Positions 12,675-44,477 of a DNA stretch of 64,000 bases are shown here, piece by piece. Each line of letters opens with the position of its first letter. Position 1 is the first letter of the stretch. The translations under genes and the position numbers were made by a program. Location: assembly GCA_015039365.1 (NCBI GenBank), contig WION01000020.1, positions 124,001 to 188,000 of the forward strand, in the 5' to 3' direction. Origin of the DNA: Amanita rubescens. Lineage: Eukaryota > Basidiomycota > Agaricomycetes > Agaricales > Amanitaceae. The notes beneath the pieces are model-generated. The model did not search any database and was not told the origin of the DNA. It worked only from the letters and a program-made list of their open reading frames with translations.

Positions 12675-13360
12675 TGTAAGGACGGTGATCCTAATTGGGA
12701 CGGAGCCCGGGAACTAAGCCGCGGATGGGGAAGGACGGAGTATAACGGAGTCCGGGACGTAGTGGGGAAAGGCTAGGCTTCAGCGTGCAAGCTGCGCCGT
12801 GCTAACGTACGTCTTGCCTAAACTTCTGGAGAACGCTCTGGAGTCCGGGATGGAGTCCGGGACCGGAGTCCGAAGGGCGAGCAGTCTGGATGAGGTTGAG
12901 ACGATGAAAGACAGGGAGTCAATACGAGTTGGGGCACAATCCAAGTCGATATTCGGACTGCTGTATGAGTACAAGTGAGGCCTTATATACGTAGTCCGAC
13001 AAGGGGTTCTATGGCCGTGTTCTGATAAGAACAGGAAACTATGGAGATATAGAACAGAAAGTGGAGTTGAGCATATGGTACGAAGGGACAGTGATACCAG
13101 TGATACCCGAGATGAAACAAGAGGTGAAACAAGTATGGAAATACGTAGAAAGGAACTTAGCGAATATGCACGGAGTTGTGACGGAGTTGTGACGGAGTCC
13201 GTCACGGAGTTTGTCACGGAGTTGTCACGGAGTTTTCGGAGTTTTGGCATAGGCTTGATATGAGATGTGACATGGGTGGAAAGTGGTCATGGGTATAGTC
13301 AGGAGTCCATCGGGGTCCGAGGTCGAGGAGTTTGGGTGGAGTCCGGAGCAGGATATGACA
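12675..13360 (-). repeat. LTR (3' LTR in element orientation)
   Basis: 686 bp, apparently identical to 15569–16254. Reading frames inside it are duplicated in both LTRs and are not genes. Confidence 0.93.
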
Positions 13361-13376
13361 GTATTCCCCCTTTAAG
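13361..13376 (-). promoter_or_regulatory. polypurine tract of the LTR element
   Basis: On the minus strand the bases next to the 3' LTR read CTTAAAGGGGGAATAC, a purine-rich plus-strand primer as expected directly upstream of a 3' LTR. This also fixes the orientation of the element. Confidence 0.75.
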
Positions 13377-14342
13377 GCCGAGCCCTCGAGGCCATTATCG
13401 ATGAGAGAGTGGGTACGAGGTCCAGAGTGTCGCAACAAACATTGCCAAAGAGAGAATAAGAGAGGATGAGGGAGGATAAGAGAGGACGTCAGAACAATGA
13501 AGTCCGGAGTTTTTCGGGGTTTTTCGGAGTCCAGAGATGTTCTGTGTGGAGGTCTGGGGATTTCCGGAGTTTTTTCGGGGATTTTCGGAGTTTTTTCGGA
13601 GTTGTTCTGTCAAAGGGAGGTGTTGTATAAGGAGGTGTATGAAGTCTGGAAATTTTCGGAGTTTTTTCGGAGTTTTTCGGGGTTTTTCGGAGTCCAGAGG
13701 ACCATTGGAGATGGAGGCTGGCATTTGGGAGAAGTTGGGGAAGAAGTCGGATGAAAGAAGGAGAAAAAATGGGGTCCGAAGGAGTGTGGGGTAGTAGCTG
13801 AATGGGTCTGGGGTTTTTTTTTCGGGGCTGTCAAGTAAGTCCGAAAATATTCAGTTACGGTAGTCAGATTAACGTCAGAGGCGTCAGGCAGCGCTGAGGT
13901 CAAGGGATAGTAGGTAGTCGGAGCCAGAGATTAGGCTTTGACAAGGGGGGATATCCTAGGGGTGTTGGCACCGTAATATGACAGAGGTCTGGAATATGGT
14001 GATGCTCCATCCGGTCAATCAACGGATTGTGTTGGTGGGGTCATCGGCGTCCGAGAACGAGTGGCAGTTCAGGTCCAACGGAAAGAAGAACAATTCACCT
14101 GGGGTAAGACAACCAGCAAGTTGGCGTCAGATCCATCCACAAGGTGGAGGCAGATAGGTGATATTGGTTGTATAGGGGTGAGAGGCGAAGAGATGGGAAT
14201 GGGGTTGTAACGGAGTCCGAGATAAAAAGGCCGAGATAACAAGCAAGTCCGGGTCGTCGAAAATGGCCACATTGAGGTAACCACTAGCACTGGTGACTGG
14301 AGTCAACGCAACTCCTAGTTAGTGCAATCCAGAGGACGCCAG
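13377..14342 (-). other. non-coding internal region of the LTR element
   Basis: Downstream of gag in element orientation. It consists partly of short degenerate repeats of TTTTTCGGAGT. No pol motif was found, and the reading frames are interrupted. Confidence 0.7.
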
Positions 14343-15536
14343 TTATTCGTCTGAGTCAGATGACTCCAATGGGGTCATATACTCTGATTCGGAGTCCGAA
14401 GTTTTGGAATTTGGGCTGGGGGGTGTGGGGTCTGAAGTTTCAGAGTTTGGACTGGAGGGTGTGGAGTCCGGAATTTCAGGGTTTGGGCTGGACATTGCAA
14501 AGTCCGGAATTTCGGAGTTGGGACTGGAGGGTGTGGAGTCCGAAATTTCGGGGTTTGGACTGGACGGTGCAAAGTCCGGAGTTTCGGGGTTTGGGATTGG
14601 GGAGTTGGGTGATGAATGTGAGACTGAGGAATGAGATCCGGAACTGTGAGTGGAGTGATTGTCAGGGGTAGTGGCAGAATGGTCAGTGTCATTGGCAAGT
14701 TCATTCTTGGTCAACCAATAAGCCTGATCAATTTGTTGGGCCTTGAGACGCATCTTGACAAGTGTCTTCGGCTTGCCACCACGGAGTAATTCAATCCGGA
14801 TACGAGTCGGGAGTCCACGGAAAAAGTGATCACGGAGTGCTGGTTCGTTCCATTCGGTACGAGAAGCGAGTTTGTTGAAGTTGACAATGTATGTAGTGAC
14901 ATGGTGATGATCCTTCATGGTGAGGTTGCTGAGTGCAGTTTCGGCATCCCCACGGAAATCGTAAGGTCCGAAATGGTCCGTGAGCTCTTTGACAAAAGCG
15001 TTAAAATCATAGAGCCAGTCAGGAATGTCATCAATATCACCCATAATGACGGGTTCAAACCAATCTAAAGCCGCGCCTTTGAGGTAAGAGATTGCATAGC
15101 GGACCATCCTTTCATCTTTCCTGAACAAGTCTGGACGGTCCGAGAACACAAGACTGCATGAAACTAGAAATTCTCGGAGTTTGCTGGGGTCCGTGCCATC
15201 AAATGGCTCGGGGTCCGGAATTTCGGCAGATGAAGGGTGCTGGAGTTTTCGGAGTCCACGGTTAAGATTCTGAATGGCGTTGGCTAGTAGGAGGTTGGAA
15301 TTCGGAGGGTTGGTTGGTGGAGGAGGATGGTTGTCTTCTTGGTCGGAGTCCGAGATGTCTGTGTGCACGGAGTTGGGCGATTTCTCACCTTCGGAGCTGG
15401 AGTTTCCGTGTCCAGAAGGAGACAACCTGGGCTTGCCTCTGCGGCGAAAAAGCACTGAGATCGAAGGGGCAGAGACATTGGAGATGGCATAGCGGCCAAT
15501 GAGGGAGGGGCCTGTCTTTGATTGAGTGTTGGGCAT
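14343..15536 (-). CDS. gag: retrotransposon Gag (Ty3/Gypsy type), 397 aa
   Basis: Gag capsid protein of the LTR element. It starts at the first ATG (MPNTQSKTGPSLIGRYAI) only 33 bp after the 5' LTR. The central part is a typical retrotransposon Gag capsid domain: PEPFDGTDPSKLREFLVSC, YLKGAALDWFEP and LRDHFFRGLP. The usual C-terminal zinc knuckle (CCHC) is missing. In its place are about 100 residues of imperfect repeats of the type PSSPNPEIPDSTPSSPN. Without pol the element depends on a helper. The Gag frame itself is uninterrupted. Confidence 0.88.
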   Translation of the reverse strand: MPNTQSKTGPSLIGRYAISNVSAPSISVLFRRRGKPRLSPSGHGNSSSEGEKSPNSVHTDISDSDQEDNHPPPPTNPPNSNLLLANAIQNLNRGLRKLQHPSSAEIPDPEPFDGTDPSKLREFLVSCSLVFSDRPDLFRKDERMVRYAISYLKGAALDWFEPVIMGDIDDIPDWLYDFNAFVKELTDHFGPYDFRGDAETALSNLTMKDHHHVTTYIVNFNKLASRTEWNEPALRDHFFRGLPTRIRIELLRGGKPKTLVKMRLKAQQIDQAYWLTKNELANDTDHSATTPDNHSTHSSGSHSSVSHSSPNSPIPNPETPDFAPSSPNPEISDSTPSSPNSEIPDFAMSSPNPEIPDSTPSSPNSETSDPTPPSPNSKTSDSESEYMTPLESSDSDE

Positions 15537-15568
15537 GAATGGACGCACGCGCACAAGTCCGAATATAC

Positions 15569-16254
15569 TGTAAGGACGGTGATCCTAATTGGGACGGAGC
15601 CCGGGAACTAAGCCGCGGATGGGGAAGGACGGAGTATAACGGAGTCCGGGACGTAGTGGGGAAAGGCTAGGCTTCAGCGTGCAAGCTGCGCCGTGCTAAC
15701 GTACGTCTTGCCTAAACTTCTGGAGAACGCTCTGGAGTCCGGGATGGAGTCCGGGACCGGAGTCCGAAGGGCGAGCAGTCTGGATGAGGTTGAGACGATG
15801 AAAGACAGGGAGTCAATACGAGTTGGGGCACAATCCAAGTCGATATTCGGACTGCTGTATGAGTACAAGTGAGGCCTTATATACGTAGTCCGACAAGGGG
15901 TTCTATGGCCGTGTTCTGATAAGAACAGGAAACTATGGAGATATAGAACAGAAAGTGGAGTTGAGCATATGGTACGAAGGGACAGTGATACCAGTGATAC
16001 CCGAGATGAAACAAGAGGTGAAACAAGTATGGAAATACGTAGAAAGGAACTTAGCGAATATGCACGGAGTTGTGACGGAGTTGTGACGGAGTCCGTCACG
16101 GAGTTTGTCACGGAGTTGTCACGGAGTTTTCGGAGTTTTGGCATAGGCTTGATATGAGATGTGACATGGGTGGAAAGTGGTCATGGGTATAGTCAGGAGT
16201 CCATCGGGGTCCGAGGTCGAGGAGTTTGGGTGGAGTCCGGAGCAGGATATGACA
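15569..16254 (-). repeat. LTR (5' LTR in element orientation)
   Basis: 686 bp, apparently identical to 12675–13360. The first internal bases on the minus strand (GTATATTCGGACTTGTGC) do not begin with the usual TGG of a tRNA-primed site, so the priming mode is not clear. Confidence 0.93.
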
Positions 16255-19103: not shown

Positions 19104-19500
19104 TGAAACGATCAGAAGAAGGCCGATGCGGAAGTGCGTTCGGCCAAAGGGACTACGGAGGTCAGTCCGAAGGGAGTCTCGGGTGCAGAGAGGGTGCCAA
19201 AGATGAAGGTGAACGAGTGGAAGGTGTCCGAAGCACCGAGGAACGAAGGGAATGGAAGGAATCGAACTCGGAACGAAGCTGGGGTAATAATTCGCTAACT
19301 ACAACTATGTACACAATGGTATATATACTACGGAGGCACGAGGTGACCATGTGATGAATCCTGTGCCGAGTCCGAGGCCTGTGCATGCGTCCGAACACAA
19401 ACGATCATCCTCTGGGATCGAGCATAGGCTCGGAGTGCTTCGGGGAGCTTCGGAAGGTTTCGGAGATCGGTTCCAATGTAGCCGGAATCGGCTCGTTACA
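19104..19500. mobile_element. solo-LTR-like insertion 1 (397 bp)
   Basis: Starts TGAAACG and ends CTCGTTACA (TG…CA ends). It is flanked by the direct 4-bp repeat CCGG at 19100–19103 and 19501–19504 and interrupts exon 4 of the KDZ transposase. The last 20 bases closely match the end of insertion 2. A TATATATAC stretch in the middle would suit an LTR promoter. No coding capacity. Confidence 0.7.
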
Positions 19501-20574: not shown

Positions 20575-20921
20575 TGTAACAACGAAACGGAGACTGTGGT
20601 GTGCAGTCTCCGATGATCCGATGCGGCCGATGGAGTTCGGCAGCACCAAAGGGTGCTCGTCCACTTCGGTCGCACTCGTCGGGGCTCGGGAATAGTGAAC
20701 TCAAGTGAGGGGTAGTAAAAGCTTTATAACAAACTATCTAAGACATGACTATATATGTACGACATGCCTCGTGTACTACGTGTGTCCGATCCGAAACGGT
20801 TGAGTCCGACACATCGGAGCTGTCGGAAGTTGTCGGAACCGTCGGAACAGGGTCCCGAGGTCGAGGGTTCGAGTCCGCGATGAGGTAGTGAGTACAACGT
20901 ACCCGGAATCGGTACGTTACA
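20575..20921. mobile_element. solo-LTR-like insertion 2 (347 bp)
   Basis: Starts TGTAACAACG and ends GTACGTTACA, so the ends form a short inverted repeat. It is flanked by CCGT (20571–20574) and CCAT (20922–20925), a 4-bp duplication with one difference. Its end CCGGAATCGG…CGTTACA is shared with insertion 1, so both belong to one family. It interrupts exon 7 of the KDZ transposase. Confidence 0.65.
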
Positions 20922-30599: not shown

Positions 30600-31113
30600 A
30601 TGGTTCATTATGTATGAACCTTTCCAAGCACTAGAGTTTCTTTGCGTAGGATACGAAGGCGACAAACGTGTCACCGATAAAATTGGTCTCTGGATACCCG
30701 AGATTGTTTATTCCCCTCGTCGTACAAAACTTGGTGAGATCGACTCAGCTCTTTCCCCTTCCAATTTCTTTTTTCTGACGCCGTTCGTTCTGGCCACAGC
30801 TCGCGAGTATATGCGAACAAAAGTACTCGTTCAATAACGAAAAATGTCTCTTATTACCCTCTCGTAAAATCGCGGACGAATGTCGGTCTTATATCGAACG
30901 ATGCTTGGAAAAAAGTGTTTAGCGAGGTGCGTCGAGGAACGACCCCACCCACACCGTCCTTACGGCCTCGACGTTTTAAAAACCAACTCTGGAACGGACT
31001 CGGGGAATCAATCCAGACCCGGGTTCGTTGTACATCATATCGTTCCACCCCGACGCGTTTGCCGTCACTAAAGGGTTTTGGCAGCATACAGGGTTAGGAG
31101 TGTCAAGTCGGTT
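30600..31113 (+). pseudogene. cystathionine gamma-synthase, N-terminal piece
   Basis: First part of a broken cystathionine gamma-synthase gene (transsulfuration, PLP-dependent Cys/Met metabolism family, Str2/Met-7 type). Readable segments are VGYEGDKRVTDK, VSGYPRLFIP, ASICEQKYSFNNEKCLL and ISFHPDAFAVTKGFWQHTG. A one-base insertion near 30680 separates the first two, and stops or frame changes occur at about 30930–31020, so this piece is no longer translatable as one frame. It stops within the codons for GVSSRF, exactly at the left end of the hAT element at 31114. The next part of the gene is the inverted piece at 34488–35107. Confidence 0.75.
31106..31113. repeat. 8-bp target duplication AGTCGGTT (partner inverted at 35100–35107)
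   Basis: AGTCGGTT abuts the left end of the left hAT copy. Its partner lies not at the other end of this copy but, reverse-complemented (AACCGACT), at the inner end of the right copy. Confidence 0.9.
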
Positions 31114-34100
31114 CAGTGTTGTACGGGTCAGCCTGACCCGGGGTCGGAAAGGTCGCGTCAAAAGGGTCACGTCGAGTGACGTGACTAAGTCAAGGGTCAG
31201 ATGTGCGTCAGGCTTATCACCCGTATCGCCATCGCCTGTACTATCGCCATATTGCCTTTCTCAATGAAACACACATAGCCATACTTGCCATCAAGCAGGC
31301 TGTTCTCGCTTCACCTAATTCATGGACAGTTAATCTCCGAGTGAATATATTACCGACTCATGAACGGCAGCCGATCGATCACCTTGCACAAGTGGCATTG
31401 AAACATCGTGTATGATATGGTGTACTCAAGTATATAGTCAATGGAGCAGTTTACGTTCCCCTTACTCGCTCTCTCATGTCTTTGAGACACTGGTCTTGGG
31501 GGTATTTCTTTACTGATGGACTTTTTTTTCGCAACAACAACTCTTACAAGAATGCATGGTGCATCGCTTGCCTCAATAATCACAAGGAACTGCTTCGGCA
31601 GTCTGACATTCTTGGTGCGGCAATTAGCGGCATCAGTGGTGACCGCACAGACGCAGAGCGGGAAGCTCAAGGTGGTTGTCAGACGTTTGGACCTCAGAGA
31701 CTATTATGAATTTTATGTAGCACGCGTCAACTGCCCGCCAATCTCAGGAAAACCAGGTCAATCAATGGTACCACACCTGAGCAAATGTATTTTTGTTGCC
31801 CCAGATGTTAAAGCTCGTGCCGTTGAAGAGATCAATGAGAAGAAAGGCCGTCGCCACGAGGATCCAGGACCTGTGCCACTTGGACGTTCGGTCAGCATGC
31901 CCCTTCCTATTATCACAACAGGTTTAGATCGGGTCCATTATCCAACTGACGGCTGGAGTGGCTCAGCAACGCCGTCACCAATGCCGAGCCCACTCTTATT
32001 GTCCACTCCTTTGGTAAATATAGATCGCCCAACAAAGCGACCTAGAACATCGAGCTTCATGAACCCAGATGGCTCGGGATCATCGAGTCCAGTTACGAGA
32101 GTATGGGACCCACACCTGCAGCAAGAATTCGGAGAAGATTTCTGTAAACTCTTGATTGCAACACGTTCGGCGTGGAACACTGCGAACAACCCGCAGGTGC
32201 GCTTGTTTGTCGACAAGTGGATTCCGGGCGCAATCGTGCCTGATCGACGAACTTTATCAGGTTCCATACTTGACCGAGAAGCAGGAAAGGTTGAGGAGAA
32301 GTTGAAGTTGAAGTTAAAGGGGCGGAAGGCGACTTTTCAGACTGATGGATGGAAGAACACGGCTAAGCAGGCAATTGTTGCAACAATGGTTAGCGTTGAC
32401 TTTGAGGTGAGCGCATGAGTTCAAGGGCGACACGCCAACATTTTGATATGACTGATGAAATATCCGCTGCAGCCTTATTTGATGCGAACTCATGATGTTT
32501 CTGCGCAACCAAAGACTGGCAAAACCCTATTGCAGCTTGTTGTGGATGATATCAGGTGGAGTGAAGAGACATATGGCCATAGAGTTATTGCTGTATGCTC
32601 TGATGATGGTGGTGATGCTCGCAAAATGCGGCGCTTGCTTCGCGCCCAAATGCCGTGGCTTATCATTACTCTTTGTTGGGCGCATCAAATTAATCTTATC
32701 GTTGGTGACTACCTCACGCTCAAGCTTCAATTCCAAGCTTGCGTCTCAAAGGCTTTGGTGGTCATCAAGTGGATGAATAATCACAGTCGCGCATTGGGAT
32801 TATTTCGTCAGGAGCAATTATTCACGTATAATAAGTCCTTGGCTCTGATTCTCCCTGTGATCACTCGCTGGACTGCTCACTATCTTTCACTTCAACGACT
32901 TCTCACCGTCGAAAAAGCTTTGAAAGCAACCTGGATTAAAAATAGCGAAATCATGATTGCAAGTGCCGGTTCTAAAAGTGATGATAAAGCAAAGGCTATA
33001 GCGGTACAGGACATAATCGAAAATCCACAGTTCTGGTACCATGTCAAGAAGTAAGCATCCAGTCGTCGATATCAATGATGCTTACGGTTACTTTTAAAGG
33101 ACGTGTAGTCATCTTGAGCCACTCGCAATCGCCGCTAATATCACTCAGGCATCTAATACTCAGCTTTATCATGTGCTGACAACGCTTGCAAACCTCTATC
33201 GCATTTATTCCAATCTTGATCCTGTAGATGAGTCAGACGTACGTGATGAAATTCTGGATAGCCTTGAGAGGCGCTGGGCGGCAGCGGATCAAGAGCCCTT
33301 TATTGCCGCTGTCGTCCTCAATCCTTATCTTCGCGGGGACCTCCTTGGGCGAGGAATAGCTTTAACACCAATTGGGTTATGTAATATGCTCAAGCGCCTG
33401 CAATGGCGTATGTTTAAAGTGGAAGCAGACGCCAATTTTCAGGCCGCGTTTATGGATTACTATAATAGGCGCGAAGAATTTTCTCCGGAAGCCATGGCTC
33501 TGGAGGACTGGATGAACATGGCCCAGATAAATGTAAGGTATAGCGTACCTTGAACTTATAATATCTGACTTTGTTGAACAGGAACAGGAGGTGAATCCTG
33601 TCGAAATTTGGGAAGGAATTGATACTGGTGAAGAAACTGGCCGCAACCGTCTCACCAAAATAGCGATACACATCCTGAGCATCGTTGCAAACTCAGCGGG
33701 GTGCGAACGCGCATTTAGCCATATGGGGCTCGTCCACACAGGCATCCGTAGTAAACTAGGAGTTGAGAAGGTTCGGAAGGCGACAGTTGTTGGAATGGAC
33801 ATCAAGCAAATGCATGTAGCCGCTGGCTTGCTTCGTGCGCGAGGAAAACGAAGCTTTACTTCCGTGACCGATGTCGAGTCGGCACCTGATCTTGACAATA
33901 TCGACTCAGAAGATCCGCTTGATTTTGATCAGTTATCCGAGCGTCTTATTGGGGGCGCAGCTTCTGCAAATGGCGATAAGGACGTGGGAGATGTTGGCGA
34001 TGATGAACTCCCTCCCGCTGTCCCACATGTCAGGTTGACAATTACCATTCCTCCGTTAACCTCAGCAACTCACTCGGCTCATCATACTCCGGTGAAAGTC

Positions 34101-34487
34101 TCTATTCAGCTTAGAACACTCTTCAAGTATCCGACCGATGGTGACCCACCTTCAGATGGGATGAACACATTCTGGAAAGGAGGTATTCAGAACTTAGAAA
34201 AAGAACTGGAAGCTTATGACTTACTGAGCAGCTCGGGCGAGGAGAATAGCACAGATCTTGAAATAAACCCTGAGATATCCGTAGTAGGGATGTAAGCTAC
34301 GACATTATATGATTTGTTACTTTATCTGTATCCCAAGAGGCGCTGGATGGTGCTGGACGACGCTGGACGACATCGGACAGCCGAGATAAGGGAATTTCTC
34401 ACGGACCCTTGACGCGTCAGTCAACGTCAGGTCACTTGACGACGGGTCGGGGTCTGACCTCGTCAGACCCGGGTCATGACAACGCTG
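31114..34487 (+). mobile_element. hAT transposon hAT1, left copy (3,374 bp)
   Basis: Begins CAGTGTTGTACGGGTCAG and ends GGGTCATGACAACGCTG, hAT-like termini. It encodes one hAT transposase. Both ends carry clusters of GGGTCA/TGACCC. It forms one arm of a perfect-looking inverted repeat with 35108–43448: positions x and 69595−x match throughout wherever I compared them. Confidence 0.92.
31476..34295 (+). CDS. hAT transposase of hAT1, left copy, 859 aa
   Basis: Exons 31476–31671, 31748–32406, 32473–33050, 33100–33532 and 33582–34295 are in phase and give 859 codons before the stop. The N-terminus has a short Cys-pair zinc-binding region (YKNAWCIACLNNHKELL) and LVPHLSKC-like residues. The middle has KATFQTDGWKNTAKQAIV and VIAVCSDDGGDARKMRRLL, followed by CWAHQINLIVGDYL, as in hAT RNase-H-like transposases of fungi. 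The C-terminal part (IVANSAGCERAFSHMGLVH) is the hAT dimerisation region. Splice sites are canonical. No lesion is seen, so the element may be active. Confidence 0.88.
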
Positions 34488-34495
34488 TTCCGCAC
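34488..34495. repeat. 8-bp target duplication TTCCGCAC (partner inverted at 43449–43456)
   Basis: Abuts the inner end of the left hAT1 copy. The partner GTGCGGAA abuts the outer end of the right copy. Confidence 0.9.
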
Positions 34496-35099
34496 GACGT
34501 CAGCACACCGCACACAAAAAGAAACGCGATCATATACTCACCCCAAACAAACGCCCTTCGCTTCAAAGCCTCGAATACCCATCGAACACTGATAGGCCGT
34601 CCAAATCGCCGCCATCCCACTTGGGAAGAGATACACATCCCCCTCTGCCACCCTCGAACTCGAACCCATCACTTCCCCGTCAACACAGTCACCTCCAAGG
34701 GAATCCTTGATCAAAACCCCCGCCAACCGCCGACGAAGTGCCCGTTTTGCAGACGCAGCGACGCACAAGGGGAGATTGTGACCGTACCGCTCTTCGAGGT
34801 AAGTCTGACAATCTGCATCCAATTCGCCGGCCTCTGGATCCTCCCTCCTCCCAGTTCCATTCGCACCTCCGGAGATGGAAACCCTCCTCCGAGGATTGGG
34901 ACTAGTACCGAAACCGAAACTGAACACGTTCTCCCCCTTGCCGGATGAATAATGCCGATGGTGCCTCTTACCGCCCCCACCGTCCGAGTTTTGGAAACAA
35001 TCAACCGCCACTTTTTCGTTGGTGGTTGTTGCCGCCGCCGCCGCACCACCACCACTGCCGTCCAAAATCCCAATCTTGATTGAAAGAAACCTCTCTGCG

Positions 35100-35107
35100 A
35101 ACCGACT
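35100..35107. repeat. 8-bp target duplication AACCGACT
   Basis: Reverse complement of AGTCGGTT at 31106–31113; abuts the inner end of the right hAT1 copy. Confidence 0.9.
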
Positions 35108-35299
35108 CAGCGTTGTCATGACCCGGGTCTGACGAGGTCAGACCCCGACCCGTCGTCAAGTGACCTGACGTTGACTGACGCGTCAAGGGTCCGTGAGAAA
35201 TTCCCTTATCTCGGCTGTCCGATGTCGTCCAGCGTCGTCCAGCACCATCCAGCGCCTCTTGGGATACAGATAAAGTAACAAATCATATAATGTCGTAGC

Positions 35300-38119
35300 T
35301 TACATCCCTACTACGGATATCTCAGGGTTTATTTCAAGATCTGTGCTATTCTCCTCGCCCGAGCTGCTCAGTAAGTCATAAGCTTCCAGTTCTTTTTCTA
35401 AGTTCTGAATACCTCCTTTCCAGAATGTGTTCATCCCATCTGAAGGTGGGTCACCATCGGTCGGATACTTGAAGAGTGTTCTAAGCTGAATAGAGACTTT
35501 CACCGGAGTATGATGAGCCGAGTGAGTTGCTGAGGTTAACGGAGGAATGGTAATTGTCAACCTGACATGTGGGACAGCGGGAGGGAGTTCATCATCGCCA
35601 ACATCTCCCACGTCCTTATCGCCATTTGCAGAAGCTGCGCCCCCAATAAGACGCTCGGATAACTGATCAAAATCAAGCGGATCTTCTGAGTCGATATTGT
35701 CAAGATCAGGTGCCGACTCGACATCGGTCACGGAAGTAAAGCTTCGTTTTCCTCGCGCACGAAGCAAGCCAGCGGCTACATGCATTTGCTTGATGTCCAT
35801 TCCAACAACTGTCGCCTTCCGAACCTTCTCAACTCCTAGTTTACTACGGATGCCTGTGTGGACGAGCCCCATATGGCTAAATGCGCGTTCGCACCCCGCT
35901 GAGTTTGCAACGATGCTCAGGATGTGTATCGCTATTTTGGTGAGACGGTTGCGGCCAGTTTCTTCACCAGTATCAATTCCTTCCCAAATTTCGACAGGAT
36001 TCACCTCCTGTTCCTGTTCAACAAAGTCAGATATTATAAGTTCAAGGTACGCTATACCTTACATTTATCTGGGCCATGTTCATCCAGTCCTCCAGAGCCA
36101 TGGCTTCCGGAGAAAATTCTTCGCGCCTATTATAGTAATCCATAAACGCGGCCTGAAAATTGGCGTCTGCTTCCACTTTAAACATACGCCATTGCAGGCG
36201 CTTGAGCATATTACATAACCCAATTGGTGTTAAAGCTATTCCTCGCCCAAGGAGGTCCCCGCGAAGATAAGGATTGAGGACGACAGCGGCAATAAAGGGC
36301 TCTTGATCCGCTGCCGCCCAGCGCCTCTCAAGGCTATCCAGAATTTCATCACGTACGTCTGACTCATCTACAGGATCAAGATTGGAATAAATGCGATAGA
36401 GGTTTGCAAGCGTTGTCAGCACATGATAAAGCTGAGTATTAGATGCCTGAGTGATATTAGCGGCGATTGCGAGTGGCTCAAGATGACTACACGTCCTTTA
36501 AAAGTAACCGTAAGCATCATTGATATCGACGACTGGATGCTTACTTCTTGACATGGTACCAGAACTGTGGATTTTCGATTATGTCCTGTACCGCTATAGC
36601 CTTTGCTTTATCATCACTTTTAGAACCGGCACTTGCAATCATGATTTCGCTATTTTTAATCCAGGTTGCTTTCAAAGCTTTTTCGACGGTGAGAAGTCGT
36701 TGAAGTGAAAGATAGTGAGCAGTCCAGCGAGTGATCACAGGGAGAATCAGAGCCAAGGACTTATTATACGTGAATAATTGCTCCTGACGAAATAATCCCA
36801 ATGCGCGACTGTGATTATTCATCCACTTGATGACCACCAAAGCCTTTGAGACGCAAGCTTGGAATTGAAGCTTGAGCGTGAGGTAGTCACCAACGATAAG
36901 ATTAATTTGATGCGCCCAACAAAGAGTAATGATAAGCCACGGCATTTGGGCGCGAAGCAAGCGCCGCATTTTGCGAGCATCACCACCATCATCAGAGCAT
37001 ACAGCAATAACTCTATGGCCATATGTCTCTTCACTCCACCTGATATCATCCACAACAAGCTGCAATAGGGTTTTGCCAGTCTTTGGTTGCGCAGAAACAT
37101 CATGAGTTCGCATCAAATAAGGCTGCAGCGGATATTTCATCAGTCATATCAAAATGTTGGCGTGTCGCCCTTGAACTCATGCGCTCACCTCAAAGTCAAC
37201 GCTAACCATTGTTGCAACAATTGCCTGCTTAGCCGTGTTCTTCCATCCATCAGTCTGAAAAGTCGCCTTCCGCCCCTTTAACTTCAACTTCAACTTCTCC
37301 TCAACCTTTCCTGCTTCTCGGTCAAGTATGGAACCTGATAAAGTTCGTCGATCAGGCACGATTGCGCCCGGAATCCACTTGTCGACAAACAAGCGCACCT
37401 GCGGGTTGTTCGCAGTGTTCCACGCCGAACGTGTTGCAATCAAGAGTTTACAGAAATCTTCTCCGAATTCTTGCTGCAGGTGTGGGTCCCATACTCTCGT
37501 AACTGGACTCGATGATCCCGAGCCATCTGGGTTCATGAAGCTCGATGTTCTAGGTCGCTTTGTTGGGCGATCTATATTTACCAAAGGAGTGGACAATAAG
37601 AGTGGGCTCGGCATTGGTGACGGCGTTGCTGAGCCACTCCAGCCGTCAGTTGGATAATGGACCCGATCTAAACCTGTTGTGATAATAGGAAGGGGCATGC
37701 TGACCGAACGTCCAAGTGGCACAGGTCCTGGATCCTCGTGGCGACGGCCTTTCTTCTCATTGATCTCTTCAACGGCACGAGCTTTAACATCTGGGGCAAC
37801 AAAAATACATTTGCTCAGGTGTGGTACCATTGATTGACCTGGTTTTCCTGAGATTGGCGGGCAGTTGACGCGTGCTACATAAAATTCATAATAGTCTCTG
37901 AGGTCCAAACGTCTGACAACCACCTTGAGCTTCCCGCTCTGCGTCTGTGCGGTCACCACTGATGCCGCTAATTGCCGCACCAAGAATGTCAGACTGCCGA
38001 AGCAGTTCCTTGTGATTATTGAGGCAAGCGATGCACCATGCATTCTTGTAAGAGTTGTTGTTGCGAAAAAAAAGTCCATCAGTAAAGAAATACCCCCAAG
38101 ACCAGTGTCTCAAAGACAT
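35300..38119 (-). CDS. hAT transposase of hAT1, right copy, 859 aa
   Basis: Mirror of the gene at 31476–34295 with the same five exons and the same predicted protein. The hAT2 insertion lies upstream of its start (134 bp beyond the ATG), so the coding frame is intact though its promoter side is displaced. Confidence 0.87.
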
Positions 38120-38245
38120 GAGAGAGCGAGTAAGGGGAACGTAAACTGCTCCATTGACTATATACTTGAGTACACCATATCATACACGATGTTTCAATGC
38201 CACTTGTGCAAGGTGATCGATCGGCTGCCGTTCATGAGTCGGTAA

Positions 38246-38253
38246 TATATTCA
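38246..38253. repeat. 8-bp target duplication TATATTCA of hAT2, left
   Basis: Repeated at 43213–43220; the uninterrupted site exists as TGAATATA at 31342–31349 in the left hAT1 copy. Confidence 0.92.
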
Positions 38254-38559
38254 TAGTGCTGCAGAGTCCTGTCCTGTCCTGTCTTTTGGCCCCGGAGGGC
38301 AGGACTGAAGACAGGACTGAAGACTGCAAGCTCAAAAGACCAGAGGACAGGACCAAGACTGCTGTAGTAGGACAGGACTGCAGTCCTGGATCAGTCTTGG
38401 ACCGGTCCTGACCAGTCTCGGACTTAATTCAGTCTCGGACCGGTCTGGACTGGTCCTGACCGGTCCTGTGCAGTCTCGATGATTAGTATATTACTATTAT
38501 AAGATAAATATCTATATACTAAGTAAAGGTAACGGTGTAATCTACCATGTATGGTAATT

Positions 38560-41500
38560 TCAATTAAAACCATCATCATAGTCTTCCGCATATAGCTCCT
38601 CCTCGTCTTTAAGTATTAGCGAAAAATCATTGAAGTCTACATCTACCTCTTCAATAGAACGGGAATTTACTCGTGCCCAGTCAATTATATTACCTTTCCA
38701 GTTGTACTGTAGGCACTCGAGTGCCTCAATGAGATCGGGCCCAATAGATGAGCGACGATCAGTAGTGACCTGTTTCGTGCGTGAAAAGAGTCGTTCACAG
38801 GAAACAGATGATCCGGGGATGGGCAAGATATCGAGTGCTATGCGGGCAAGGGTCGGATACCTCGTTGTATGCATCTGCCACAAATCCTACTAATTAGCAC
38901 CGTTACGCTGCTCATTGATATTACACTCACAGCCCACCATTTTAGAGTATCCATCTTCTTCTTCACGTCACATAAAGGTTCCTCGACATATCGCTTGAGC
39001 TCCCCTTCCCATCCTTGTGTCACCGCCATTAAACGCCCCTTACGTGCCCGGTCGAAGTCATCGTCGTCGTCGTGATCATCGTCATCGTCATCATCACGGC
39101 GATGACAATGCTTGTTGGTATCCAGATCGATCACCTCATTCGCTGTTTGAATTGCGACGCCGAAGCGTTTCGGCCAGTATTCAGCCATCTACTATGATGT
39201 CAGCACAGATATTACTAGGTAAGAAGAGACTCACGGCTTCACGGACAATGACCCATGCCTCTGCCTGCCAATCCTTCGCATCGTGACTTCCCGCTTGAAT
39301 CTCCTCTTCCCACTCATTCCTTCCACCCCATTTCGTCTCTATGTATTCCATTCGATAGTAGGGGTGCAATACTGTTGTCAAGGATCAGCTACTCATCAAA
39401 CAACGATGGAAATGAAAAACGTACACATTGATAAGACATATACCGGCGTATTATCGAGGTTAACGTAGTACTTGTTCAATTTCGATAATCCGCTCTTGAT
39501 TGCAGAGCGAAAGTCGCTGAATTTGGGGTTTGCAAGCTTGCGCTCCCATCGTGTCAAGAGGCCTTCGAGTGCGGGGATAACACGGTGCAGCGTGGGGAAG
39601 GCGTCCGATGAGAACTTCTGCTGGTATTCGTTGGCATCCTGCGAGAATATGTGAGCATCCATGAAAAGAACGCACAAACGAGTCAGTCGAGATCCATACC
39701 TCTAGTATTTCGGCACACCACACCACCCGTTCCCATTTTGGCTCATCTAGTAAAAAAGCCGTCCATGGAATCTTCTTCACTACCTTTCCGTGTTTACGAA
39801 TGGTTGTTATGGGGCCAAATTTCTTATCTGCGCTCAGAATAAACGAATCAATAGGCTACAAAGATGTGTTTAAGTCCAGAAATGCAGTACTACTACCAAG
39901 AGTCCACGCACCTCGCGTAGCTTGTATGCACGCTCGCACATGGCAAACGCAGTGCCCCATCGAGTATTACCATGCAGGGGTATCTTCAGTGGCTTATCAA
40001 TGTTGAACTTATAATATACGATATACATACAGTATATAGTAAATATAAGTGATATCATTAGTTTACACTAACTAATGTAATAACGCTCAGTTACTTACTC
40101 GTCTCTCAACCAATCATAATAGTGGATGATTGAGTGTGAGATAATATATTGACATGAGAATATATTCAACATATTCTCATACTCATCTACCAATCATAAT
40201 AGTGGATGATTGATGATGAGAACATATTCTGACATGAGAATATCCTAGCGATATTCTCATAAGATCATCCAATCATAATAGTGGAACTATTGATGATGTG
40301 AATATATGTTGACATGAGAATAGATGACATATATACGTTATGGTTATCGACCTATCACATTGAAGATTGATAATGTGATGAGTCAGTCAATATAATTGAT
40401 GAGTCAAGTGCTGCGCAAAGCTATGCATTGCTGTATAATAGCTGTGCATTGCTGTAGAATGACGCCTTATGAGTCAAATATCTGTGACTCATACTGATAA
40501 GACTCTTTGTACTTATTTGTAGTTTAGTAGTATATAAACTGTACTCTAGTAGCGTCAATCCTTATCCTATTATCCTCTCTACTGTCTACTGTTGAGCCCC
40601 AGCTCCAGTAAGCTCTTAACAACTCCACACCACACTCGGTAAGTAGTACATTCTATGTACTAGACTGCGCTGCTCGCTAGGGATTTGTTATCCCTAGTTT
40701 CAACAATCAAAGCCATGATCGCGTTGCTGCTTTTCGAACCACTCCTTGCGCTGACCTGAAGCTTGAATCTGAATCATGCGATCGATCAGAAATCAGTCAA
40801 GTGACAAGGATGGGAAGAAGCCAAGATACCTTGACGACGAGTGTCCGGATCGTAGCGATGACATCCAGCCCGCCAATAACTAACCGATTTTCAGGCAAAG
40901 AGGGATCAAAGTCCCAGATTGCCTGCTTCGTCTCAACGACCGCCAGCTGGGTGATCTCAGACATGAAGTCTGAGATCCCCAACTGGATCACATGCGCTAG
41001 GCACCTGTATGTGGTGCGTGAAATGTGATTCATGAAGAACAAAACAACTTAACTCACCCAAGTTGACGGGATTCTGCTGACCACTTTGTAAACCCACGCC
41101 GCCTTAACACGGATGCCACCTTCTTTACTGTGGTCATGTTATTACTTGCGTTGTCCGCAGTGACGTAGCCAAGCTAAGTTGCCGAAGATAAGAAGATGGT
41201 AAGGAAAAGATTTGCTAACGCACATTGTTAGATGTTTTGGAAGTAACACCGACACGATCCAAGAGCTTGATAACGTAGCGGCCAAGGTTGTCGCCATCGT
41301 GTGGACCGGAAATCTTGTGCATCGCGAGAACTTCTGAACGAAAAACCCAGCCGTCCGCCTTCACATCAATCCACTGGGCGCAAAGACCCAAAAATGCGGT
41401 GCTTGTGTGCGGAGCTGTCCAGGTATCCCAATTAACTGAAACATCTCCAATGGTTTGCCGGAAGGTGAGCTTCAGATTGCTGATATATTCATTAAAGTCA

Positions 41501-42558
41501 CTGATTATCTTGCTGCAAATTGCTGAGCGCCCTGGAAGATCTTCGTGAGTTGTTTTTGGACGCATCGTGACCAGGCAATTGGTGAAGGTGAGATCATCAC
41601 CAAGGACAAGGGCCTAACCGGGGTTTAGGGTAAGGACTCAATGCGATCTTATCGATATTAAATTACTAAGCACGTACCTCATCACTGCAGACAACGTGTT
41701 TGACAATCGCGTTGAGGATGGCAGCTCGGGAGAACGCGGTCGGACCCTCAACCTTCTGTACGACGCTGTCAAGCGTCTTTTGCATGTGGACCGGCTTCTT
41801 CCTCTCTGCTTCATTACGCTCTCGCTCCAACACGCTCTTTGGTACCGCAGCTGGCTTTTCGGCGTACCCCTTCTCTTTGCACCGCTTTGAATACTCTTGG
41901 TAGTGGAAGGCGGCGATGTGGCGGCAGCAGCTTGTGTTACTGCCACTAAGCCAACCCGCCATCGCACCACGTTTCTTTTTAACTACGGCATCTTCTCTGC
42001 AAGAAACACGACTGGGTATGCATAAACCACTCGGTGTATCCACATGACTAACGTACCTGCAGATTCCACACCACCGTCCCTTCTTCATATCAGAAGACCC
42101 ATCGCGACGATTAAACTTGACCGTTACGCAGGTGGAGAAGATTGTCTCCATGTCGCGCGTTTTTTCGACCTTCGCCTCATGATGACCTGTGCATTCATCA
42201 GGCTCCATCTGTAAATGCGAATTAGCCTGTACGTTCGAAATGCTGACTCTTAATATAGAGGACTTACCTCGCTCTGAACTTCAGCATCCTCTTCATCTCC
42301 CTCAGGCGCCCTTCTTTCCTCGTCCACTTCTTCAACTAGGTTATTGCTACTCCTGTTCTCAACTTCAATTATTTCATCTTCAGAGTCTTCGGGTGTCCGG
42401 GTATAGCGACGTTTTGGTGCCGGCGTCAAGTCATCAACTTCAACATCAAGTGTTCGTTTATTGGATCTCGACGATGACGACACGGAATCTTGTGCCTCAA
42501 GAAGTCTCTGAGAGGGAACATGCTTGCGTGATGATTTGCGCAACATGGCTGACTCCAT
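38560..42558 (-). pseudogene. hAT2 transposase, split by a solo LTR
   Basis: Multi-exon gene starting at ATG 42558 (MESAMLRKSSRKHVPSQRLL). In order it has a Ser/Glu-rich head, a BED-type finger (GRWCGICR with later Cys/His pairs, RHIAAFHYQEYSKRCK), the catalytic part (NWDTWTAPHTSTAFLGLCAQ, CLAHVIQLGISDFM, PLKIPLHGNTRWGTAF), NKYYVNLDNTPVYVLSM, and the C-terminal dimerisation domain (DILPIPGSSVSCERLFSRTK). The frame is broken at 40001–40705 between WFEKQQRDHGFD and DKPLKIPLHGN by the LTR. I did not map every intron. The remaining exons look undamaged. Confidence 0.8.
40001..40705. mobile_element. solo LTR (705 bp) inside hAT2
   Basis: Starts TGTTGAACTTATAATA and ends CCCTAGTTTCAACA (inverted TGTTGAA ends) and is flanked by the perfect 5-bp repeat ATCAA (39996–40000 and 40706–40710). 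Inside are three near-identical blocks around CCAATCATAATAGTGGATGATTGA and a TATATAAAC stretch. It has no coding region. It represents an LTR retrotransposon reduced to one LTR by recombination; the Copia-like ends are suggestive only. Confidence 0.88.
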
Positions 42559-43448
42559 GTCTCGTGAACGAATGAACCCAGAGGTGGGCCGACGTTTTTT
42601 ATTCCAAAAAAAAGAGACTAATTACTAATTGCTAGTACACCTGAGTCGGAGTTAGGTGCGCGCACTAGTGTTGCGGCGTTAAGTCCACACAATGATCCGA
42701 AGAGCATGCCGCCTTGCACTTACTGCACCATCTACTCAACGTCTCGAACTTAAGAAGTACTATATTAAGCACTAATCGACGCGTGCCACCTTGATCTAAT
42801 ACTCAACACTCTGAACCTGAGCTAAGTTAGGCATCCAACACCTGAGTCTTCCGTGTAACGAGCGACGCCCACTTGGCATCACCCGTTTGATGTTTCAAAC
42901 CTCTCCCATACCCCATTGAGTTATTATTAATAGTAATACACATCAGATGGCTGTCATTGCCCGGGCGCCGGTATTCAACGGCCGCTGAGTCAAGTTGTCG
43001 TCTCAAATGCCATTGCCTGCCTAAGCTTTAAGACCGGTCAGGACCGGTCCCAACCAGTCTTGGCCGGTCCTTCATTTCCCTGAGTTCCCCAGGACCGGGA
43101 CCGGGACCGAGACAGGACAGCAAAAGACTGAGCTGCAGTCCCGTCTTTGACCGGTCCTACTCCGGTCTTTGATCAGTCTCGGACCGGTCCGGGACCGGAC
43201 TCTGCAGCACTATATATTCACTCGGAGATTAACTGTCCATGAATTAGGTGAAGCGAGAACAGCCTGCTTGATGGCAAGTATGGCTATGTGTGTTTCATTG
43301 AGAAAGGCAATATGGCGATAGTACAGGCGATGGCGATACGGGTGATAAGCCTGACGCACATCTGACCCTTGACTTAGTCACGTCACTCGACGTGACCCTT
43401 TTGACGCGACCTTTCCGACCCCGGGTCAGGCTGACCCGTACAACACTG

Positions 43449-44433
43449 GTGCGGAAAGGTTCACGTACACCGAGACCCTCAAAATTCTCCAAAAATGGGG
43501 TCCAGGATGCCATTTCTTTGAAAACGGACTAGACTCGGATATTGATAAGCTCGCAAAGATGTTGGTTGATCAGGGGCCGATTTTGGCGCTGTTCGCCGAG
43601 TTTCCGTCCAACCCTTTGTTGAGATCGGTGAACTTGCCAAGGTTGAGGGCATTGGCGGACGAGTACGGTTTGCGCTCGTGGTGGACGAGACGGTGGGAAG
43701 TATCGTGAATGTGGAGGTCATCCAGTATACGGATATCGTCGTGAGCGGTTTCACCGGGATTTTCAGTGGGGATGCGAATGTCATGGGTGGATCGTGAGTG
43801 GATCATTCTTGACTAGACGTACTATCTCATCGTGTCAAAGTCTCGTGTTGAACCCACAAGGAAGGTACTACAAAGCGTTAAAGGACCACCTCGATTCCAC
43901 TTTTGAAGATGTCTATTTTGATGAAGACTATATACCTAGAACGAAACTCGAGAGATTTCAAACGGCGCATTTGGAGAATCAACGCCAACACGGAGGCCGT
44001 ATGCAATTTCCTGTGCTCGCGCTCTATAGCGGGCGGCAATACCTCTCCAGACACCGTCATCAAACAAGTCTTTCACCCAAAATATTCCACGCCCGAAAAT
44101 TACGAGCGGTGTCGGAAGAAAAAGGGCGAAGACGAGGAAGGCGGGTACGGAGGCCTCTTTTCGCTCACCTTCACCTCGAGAGCGGCATCTGAAGCGTTCT
44201 TCGACGCACTGCAGTGCTTCAAAGGCCCTAGTCTCGGAACAAACTTTACCCTTGCGTGCCCGTATACCATCCTGGCGTGGCACTATGGTGAGCTGGATTG
44301 GGCGGCGGGGTTCGGGGTCGAGGCAGGGCTGGTGAGAGTCAGTGTTGGGATGGAAGACAAGGATGACCTTTTGAAGCTGTTTGAAGTGGCATTGAATGCG
44401 GCACAGATTCAGGCGCAGGGTGAGAGCCAGTGA
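43449..44433 (+). pseudogene. cystathionine gamma-synthase, C-terminal piece
   Basis: The exon starts at 43459 after the intron end GGAAAG and reads FTYTETLKILQKWGPGCHF and LFAEFPSNPLLRSVNL. It then reaches the PLP-lysine region as SGFTGIFSGDANVMGGS; in the family this is SxxTKIFSGD, so the lysine (43756–43758) is replaced by Gly. An intron (43794–43840) follows, then LVLNPQGRYYKALKDHL. Near 43928 the frame shifts by loss of two bases or gain of one before IYLERNSRDF. The rest is conserved: KGPSLGTNFTLACPYTILAW, ELDWAAGFGVEAGLVRVSVG, stop at 44433. Pieces 1 and 2 of the gene lie at 30600–31113 and 34488–35107. A functional second copy elsewhere is expected but not visible here. Confidence 0.88.
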
Positions 44434-44477
44434 ACGTCTATATGCTGTCGACAGGGACTTTATTTTCGTGGAGCTTT

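What the first reader, a model, noticed from the sequence alone, without database searches (positions are those of the whole stretch)
31106..43456. Inversion between two inverted hAT copies, shown by swapped target duplications
Each hAT1 copy has different 8-bp flanks at its two ends: left copy AGTCGGTT / TTCCGCAC, right copy AACCGACT / GTGCGGAA. Pairing end 1 of the left copy with end 1 of the right copy, and end 2 with end 2, gives two perfect 8-bp duplications. This is what remains when two inverted insertions recombine and flip the DNA between them. The flipped 620 bp (34488–35107) encodes the middle of cystathionine gamma-synthase on the minus strand while its other parts lie on the plus strand, and turning it back restores the codon order at both borders. 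Both the inversion and its mechanism are thus recorded in the sequence.
Basis: partly seen in the sequence, partly recalled or inferred. Interest (0 to 1): 0.88.

Follow-up and report, generated by a model that had tools for sequence, protein, structure and literature searches.

The report
Transposon pair flanking a flipped segment
In one of two nearly identical stretches of an assembled genome, likely the paired chromosomes of a fungus, two identical, oppositely facing copies of a jumping gene flank a 620-base piece of DNA that is turned round relative to the other stretch, which lacks both; the two copies likely come from one insertion that duplicated itself and flipped the piece in a single faulty jump, although an ordinary crossover or an assembly error would look the same.

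Summary
Two identical 3,374-bp hAT copies lie in opposite orientation around a 620-bp spacer. Their four 8-bp flanks pair crosswise (AGTCGGTT and GTGCGGAA). The right copy is split by a second hAT (4,959 bp) that holds a solo LTR. New evidence: the same genome holds a likely allelic contig, C774 (99.5-99.8% identical in the four blocks over 1 kb), which lacks both hAT copies, has each target 8-mer once at the site, and has the 620 bp in the opposite orientation. That is an empty, unflipped site. The claim that the mechanism is recorded is too strong: a script shows that two insertions plus a crossover, and one hybrid-end (sister-chromatid) transposition of a single hAT, give the same sequence. 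Delprat et al. 2009 state this ambiguity and name identical versus chimeric copies as the test. Here the copies are identical, and no other full copy was found in 75.7 Mb, so I lean slightly to the one-step event. The interrupted cystathionine gamma-synthase-like gene looks degenerate on both contigs. An assembly flip is unlikely but not excluded without reads. This is a known kind of rearrangement in an unusually complete record.

The parts
31106..31113 (+). outer left 8-bp flank AGTCGGTT
   Evidence: once at the C774 junction
31114..34487 (+). hAT1 left copy, 3374 bp, ends CAGTGTTGT / ACAACGCTG
31486..34292 (+). hAT1 transposase, predicted exons 31486-32406, 32473-33050, 33100-33532, 33582-34292 (start codon not fixed); DUF659 and hAT dimerisation domains
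   Evidence: splicing predicted; Pfam
34488..34495 (+). inner left 8-bp flank TTCCGCAC
34488..35107 (-). 620-bp spacer, reversed relative to likely allelic contig C774:131992-132611; piece of a degenerate cystathionine gamma-synthase-like gene
35100..35107 (+). inner right 8-bp flank AACCGACT
35108..43448 (-). hAT1 right copy, in two pieces (35108-38253 and 43213-43448), identical to the left copy apart from the nested insertion and its 8-bp duplication
38246..38253 (+). hAT2 target duplication TATATTCA, left
38254..43212 (.). hAT2 nested in the right hAT1 copy (ends TAGTGCTGCAGAGTCC and its inverse); relative at C154:46132-50380
   Evidence: filed as hAT by its ends and 8-bp duplications only
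40001..40705 (.). solo LTR inside hAT2, 5-bp target duplication ATCAA; absent from the C154 relative
43213..43220 (+). hAT2 target duplication TATATTCA, right
43449..43456 (+). outer right 8-bp flank GTGCGGAA
   Evidence: once at the C774 junction
43457..44453 (+). 3' part of the cystathionine gamma-synthase-like pseudogene (PF01053)

Best explanation
Two identical, inverted hAT copies flank a 620-bp segment that is reversed relative to a near-identical, likely allelic contig lacking both copies; they likely arose from one hAT insertion at AGTCGGTT whose left end on one sister chromatid and right end on the other were joined by transposase into the site GTGCGGAA 620 bp away, which would duplicate the element and invert the interval in one step. 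Shown: the two copies, their identity, the crossed target duplications, the contig with an empty and unreversed site, and that this model yields the observed letters exactly. Inferred: that the two contigs are the two haplotypes of a dikaryon, that the event was a single hybrid-end transposition and not a local hop followed by a crossover, and that the assembly orientation is right. Afterwards hAT2 inserted into the right copy (the order is inferred); a solo LTR lies in hAT2.
For: The sister-chromatid hybrid-end product, built in a script from the sequence pieces with hAT2 left out, equals the observed 9,489 letters. Of 9 DNA matches to hAT1 in the 75.7-Mb assembly, 3 are these two copies (one copy in two pieces) and the other 6 are no longer than 89 bp. 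Of 7 protein matches to the C-terminal part of the transposase, 2 are these copies and 5 are only 28-36% identical (the tool calls its counts lower bounds). So a single founding insertion is likely. The copies differ at 0 of 3,374 bases, whereas the two contigs differ by 82 substitutions in 33,339 aligned bases. Identical copies are what the hybrid-element model predicts, and chimeric copies what ectopic recombination predicts (PMC2775673, passages). C774 shows each target once with no footprint, so it reads as never having held hAT1. The transposase reads open through four predicted exons, with DUF659 and PF05699 above their cut-offs.
Against: Two insertions plus a crossover give the same letters. 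Identity is also expected for a recent local hop or after gene conversion, and no other full hAT1 copy was found with which to test for chimerism. Ordinary transposition is thought to be commoner than hybrid-end transposition (recalled), and inverted 3.4-kb arms could flip their spacer repeatedly, so the present orientation says little about origin. The orientation rests on one assembly without reads. An exact search in C774 for the 2,620-letter joined flanks plus spacer found neither orientation, so the empty site rests on the alignment and the printed junctions of that call.
Confidence: 0.43

Rival explanations
1. hAT1 inserted at one site and a second copy was placed 620 bp away in opposite orientation by ordinary local transposition; later a crossover between the two inverted copies flipped the spacer.
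For: The product equals the observed sequence. The arms are identical, 3.4 kb long and 620 bp apart, which should make them good substrates for host recombination. Exchanged target duplications are the expected mark of this (PMC2775673, passages).
Against: It needs two events plus the right orientation. There is no chimerism to show a crossover, since the copies are identical. Two independent arrivals are improbable, so the second copy must be a local hop.
Confidence: 0.4
2. Assembly artefact: the genome has two ordinary inverted insertions, and the assembler placed the 620-bp spacer in the wrong orientation between identical arms.
For: The arms are 100% identical over 3.37 kb, so reads shorter than about 3.4 kb could not fix the orientation.
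Against: The contig is 447,660 bases long with no N in the window. It places a nested hAT2 in one arm only and is kept apart from a contig differing at about 0.25%, as long reads would allow; the read type itself is unknown. Reads of about 5 kb would span the left arm. No contig found shows the other orientation between hAT1 arms: of 8 spacer matches, 2 (C113 and C774) are full-length at about 100%, and full-length hAT1 lies only on C113.
Confidence: 0.14
3. Chance or unrelated cause: two unrelated insertions with coincidental flanks, or breakage and end-joining.
For: None found.
Against: Two exact 8-base matches at exact element ends (probability about 2e-10), and C774 holds both targets once, exactly 620 bp apart end to end.
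Confidence: 0.01

Closest known systems
Galileo-generated inversions of Drosophila buzzatii (2z3; also 2j, 2q7)
   Different: Galileo is a P-superfamily element and the two 2z3 copies are chimeric, which the authors take as showing ectopic recombination. Here the element is a hAT, the copies are identical and the inverted segment is only 620 bp.
Hybrid element insertion (P element) and sister chromatid transposition (Ac/Ds)
   Same: One end from each of two sister copies inserts at a new site, giving two copies and rearranged flanks. The legend of Figure S1A in PMC2775673 describes an inversion flanked by two copies arising this way. Ac/Ds are hAT elements (recalled). Passages on sister chromatid transposition were seen in PMC8225341 and PMC3744419.
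   Different: Here it is only inferred from the end product, in a likely fungus. The passages seen credit Ac/Ds sister transposition with inverted duplications, composite insertions and deletions, not with this local inversion.
MarorhAT-10 of the mushroom Marasmius oreades
   Same: Autonomous hAT of 3,396 bp with DUF659 and hAT dimerisation region, active in a mushroom, with local pairs and one inversion event (PMC9674265, passages and section 7 read).
   Different: There the pair was head-to-tail about 2.5 kb apart, and one copy was inverted with the middle deleted. No exchanged duplications were reported in what I read. The sequence was not compared here.
impala aberrant transposition in Fusarium oxysporum
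   Same: Non-standard transposition causing rearrangement in a fungus (cited in PMC8225341, passages; the impala paper itself was not read).
   Different: Tc1-mariner element, not hAT.

Membership tests
hAT superfamily transposon (hAT1) | 8-bp target site duplication | tested here: met
   AGTCGGTT and GTGCGGAA each once at the empty site and twice at element ends, counting both strands
hAT superfamily transposon (hAT1) | short terminal inverted repeats | tested here: met
   CAGTGTTGT and CAGCGTTGT at the two ends, 8 of 9 alike
hAT superfamily transposon (hAT1) | transposase with hAT C-terminal dimerisation domain | tested here: met
   PF05699 24.7 bits, cut-off 21.4, and PF04937 49.7 bits, cut-off 34.7, in the predicted spliced protein
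hAT superfamily transposon (hAT1) | catalytic D, D, E residues | tested here: inconclusive
   TDGW, SDDGG and CERAF stretches are in the protein; their match to the catalytic residues is recalled, not aligned
inversion by ectopic recombination between two transposons | exchanged target duplications | tested here: met
inversion by ectopic recombination between two transposons | two chimeric copies | tested here: inconclusive
   copies identical; no other full copy found to define parental types
hybrid element insertion / sister chromatid transposition | two identical copies, shared original duplication, new duplication at the second breakpoint, no loss of DNA | tested here: met
   modelled product equals the observed sequence with hAT2 left out; PMC2775673 Figure S1A legend
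hybrid element insertion / sister chromatid transposition | reciprocal chromatid with an excision footprint at the donor site | not testable with these tools
   the reciprocal product would be in another nucleus or strain; C774 shows no footprint and reads as ancestral

The most novel reading that the evidence does not exclude
A single hAT in a mushroom-type fungus duplicated itself, turned its neighbourhood round and exchanged the target duplications in one sister-chromatid transposition. The identical 3.4-kb inverted arms would then act as a flip switch for the 620 bp between them in living nuclei, with the empty, unreversed allele preserved in the partner nucleus as a control.
Probability: 0.35. 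Interest if true: 0.5.

Novelty: new member of a known kind. Interest (0 to 1): 0.4.

Why it matters
The empty and the rearranged state sit side by side in one genome, so both target sites can be read directly. The case also warns that exchanged target duplications, often taken as the mark of recombination between transposons, cannot by themselves separate it from a one-step faulty transposition. A fungus with one locus, two copies and an empty partner allele would be a simple place to test the two.

Tried and rejected
Rejected: two independent random insertions (about 3e-5 for a second hit within 620 bp, and no other full copy found). Rejected: a composite element carrying the spacer in from elsewhere, because C774 holds the spacer at the same place. 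Rejected: C774 as an excision product, because each 8-mer stands at its junction once with no footprint. Doubted: that the inversion broke a working gene, because three short length differences that shift the frame are shared by both contigs and absent from the paralogue near C774:55 kb.

Led nowhere: of the six loci with short end-only relatives of hAT1, three were tested for a paired target duplication and none showed one within the DNA held. A try at splicing the paralogue near C774:55 kb gave no product over 450 residues, so I do not claim that the paralogue is intact. Literature searches showed, by title and start of abstract, no fungal hAT inversion with exchanged duplications. They cover only the open library, I saw only the rows listed (20 of 78, 20 of 35, 6 of 6, 8 of 926), and I opened four papers in all. 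Searches listed 20 of 20,835, 3 of 3 and 12 of 5,460. One search listed 10 of 12 papers and I opened none of them for Tam3; the snapdragon Tam3 inversion is recalled only.
Full report
What is there. In window 31106-43456 two copies of a 3,374-bp hAT (hAT1) lie in opposite orientation around a 620-bp spacer. The arms are fully complementary over 3,146 and 237 bp, and the left copy equals the reverse of the right copy once the interruption is set aside. The four 8-bp flanks are AGTCGGTT and TTCCGCAC on the left copy, AACCGACT and GTGCGGAA on the right copy. Crosswise, they form two perfect target duplications. The right copy is interrupted at 38254-43212 by a second element (hAT2) with its own 8-bp duplication TATATTCA. 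hAT2 holds a 705-bp solo LTR with duplication ATCAA. A relative of hAT2 on contig C154 has its own duplication AGTATGAT and no LTR.

A control in the same genome. Contig C774 matches the window from about 18.1 kb to the end of the fetched stretch, at 99.5-99.8% in the four blocks over 1 kb, apart from insertions. At the locus it runs straight from the left flank through the spacer to the right flank, with no hAT, one AGTCGGTT and one GTGCGGAA at the junctions, and the spacer reversed relative to the window with one mismatch in 620. An exact search for the 2,620-letter joined sequence failed in both orientations, so this rests on the alignment and the printed junctions. The search for the right flank gives the same adjacency. 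So the window carries the derived state and C774 reads as the ancestral one. That the two contigs are the two haplotypes of a dikaryon is inferred from their similarity and order.

What the element is. The left copy has a transposase that reads open through four predicted exons, 881 codons to the stop with the start not fixed. It has DUF659 (49.7 bits, cut-off 34.7) and the hAT dimerisation domain (24.7 bits, cut-off 21.4). Of 9 DNA matches to hAT1 in the assembly, 3 are these two copies and 6 are pieces of 89 bp or less. Of 7 protein matches to its C-terminal part, 2 are these copies and 5 are 28-36% identical. The search tool calls its counts lower bounds.

Age. The two hAT1 copies differ at 0 of 3,374 bases. 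The two contigs differ by 82 substitutions in 33,339 aligned bases; six of the eight listed blocks were counted, and the two 78%-identical repeat matches and all gaps were left out. At that rate 8.3 differences would be expected in hAT1, and none has a probability of about 2.5e-4. The pair is therefore likely younger than the split of the contigs or has been kept alike by gene conversion. hAT2 differs from its C154 relative by 10 and 5 substitutions in two blocks of 2,506 and 1,751 aligned bases, plus two gaps.

The gene. The spacer and its flanks are parts of a cystathionine gamma-synthase-like gene. Of four open pieces of the C774 copy, PF01053 is found in one, the 3' piece. The piece that holds most of the spacer gives no Pfam match, nor does its counterpart in the paralogue near C774:55 kb, of which two other pieces do match PF01053. 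So the spacer is assigned by its position and its alignment to paralogues. The gene is likely not functional in either haplotype: three short length differences that shift the frame are shared by both contigs and absent from that paralogue, and the family search counts four stops inside the match on both contigs (introns are read through there, so some of these stops may be intronic). The left target lies within a 231-codon open frame. The right target lies next to what looks like a 3' splice site, in an intron by comparison with the paralogue (by eye).

Mechanism. A script built two products. One was two inverted insertions with the spacer then flipped. The other was a single insertion whose two ends, one from each sister chromatid, insert at GTGCGGAA with inversion. 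Both equal the observed sequence letter for letter with hAT2 set aside, and the unflipped pair does not. Delprat et al. 2009 (PMC2775673, passages seen) state that the two models give strikingly similar outcomes and that copies are identical under hybrid element insertion but chimeric under ectopic recombination. Here the copies are identical, but no third copy was found to define parental types, and a local hop would also give identical copies. Parsimony favours one event; the commonness of ordinary transposition (recalled) favours two. I give 0.43 to 0.40. Because identical inverted arms could keep flipping their spacer, the present orientation is weak evidence for either origin.

Artefact. 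An assembler could flip the spacer if reads were shorter than about 3.4 kb. The 447,660-base contig without N in the window, the separation of near-identical contigs and the placement of hAT2 in one arm speak for longer reads, but I could not see reads or the read type. I leave 0.14.

Place among known things. Inversions with exchanged duplications between transposons are known from Drosophila Galileo. Hybrid-end events are known from P elements and from Ac/Ds (PMC2775673, PMC8225341, PMC3744419, passages). In the mushroom Marasmius oreades an active hAT of almost the same size with the same two domains has taken part in local rearrangements, including one inversion (PMC9674265, passages and section 7). 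The present case is a new member of a known kind. Its merit is the complete record in one genome and the demonstration that the record does not identify the mechanism.

Noticed in passing
12675-16254: A repeat of about 3.6 kb, likely an LTR element with about 690-bp ends; contig C311 carries the flanks at 100% without it and with a 5-bp overlap, so it is likely another insertion present in one haplotype only.
   Followed up: partly
19105-19495 and 20575-20921: Two insertions of 391 and 347 bp relative to C774 with similar right ends (GTTACACC); likely small non-autonomous transposons.
   Followed up: no
40001-40705: Solo LTR whose relatives elsewhere in several cases occur in pairs about 9.3 kb apart, likely complete retrotransposons.
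   Followed up: partly
43457-44453 (C774 near 38.7, 45.8, 55, 63 and 132 kb): Several cystathionine gamma-synthase-like copies lie along C774, likely an old cluster of duplicates with decay.
   Followed up: partly
31114-31202 and 34405-34487: Outside this locus, hAT1 ends recur as pieces of 83-89 bp at 95-96% on C451, C182, C564, C276 and C24, and as a 59-bp piece at 86% on C201, without the interior; perhaps non-autonomous elements once moved by the same transposase.
   Followed up: partly
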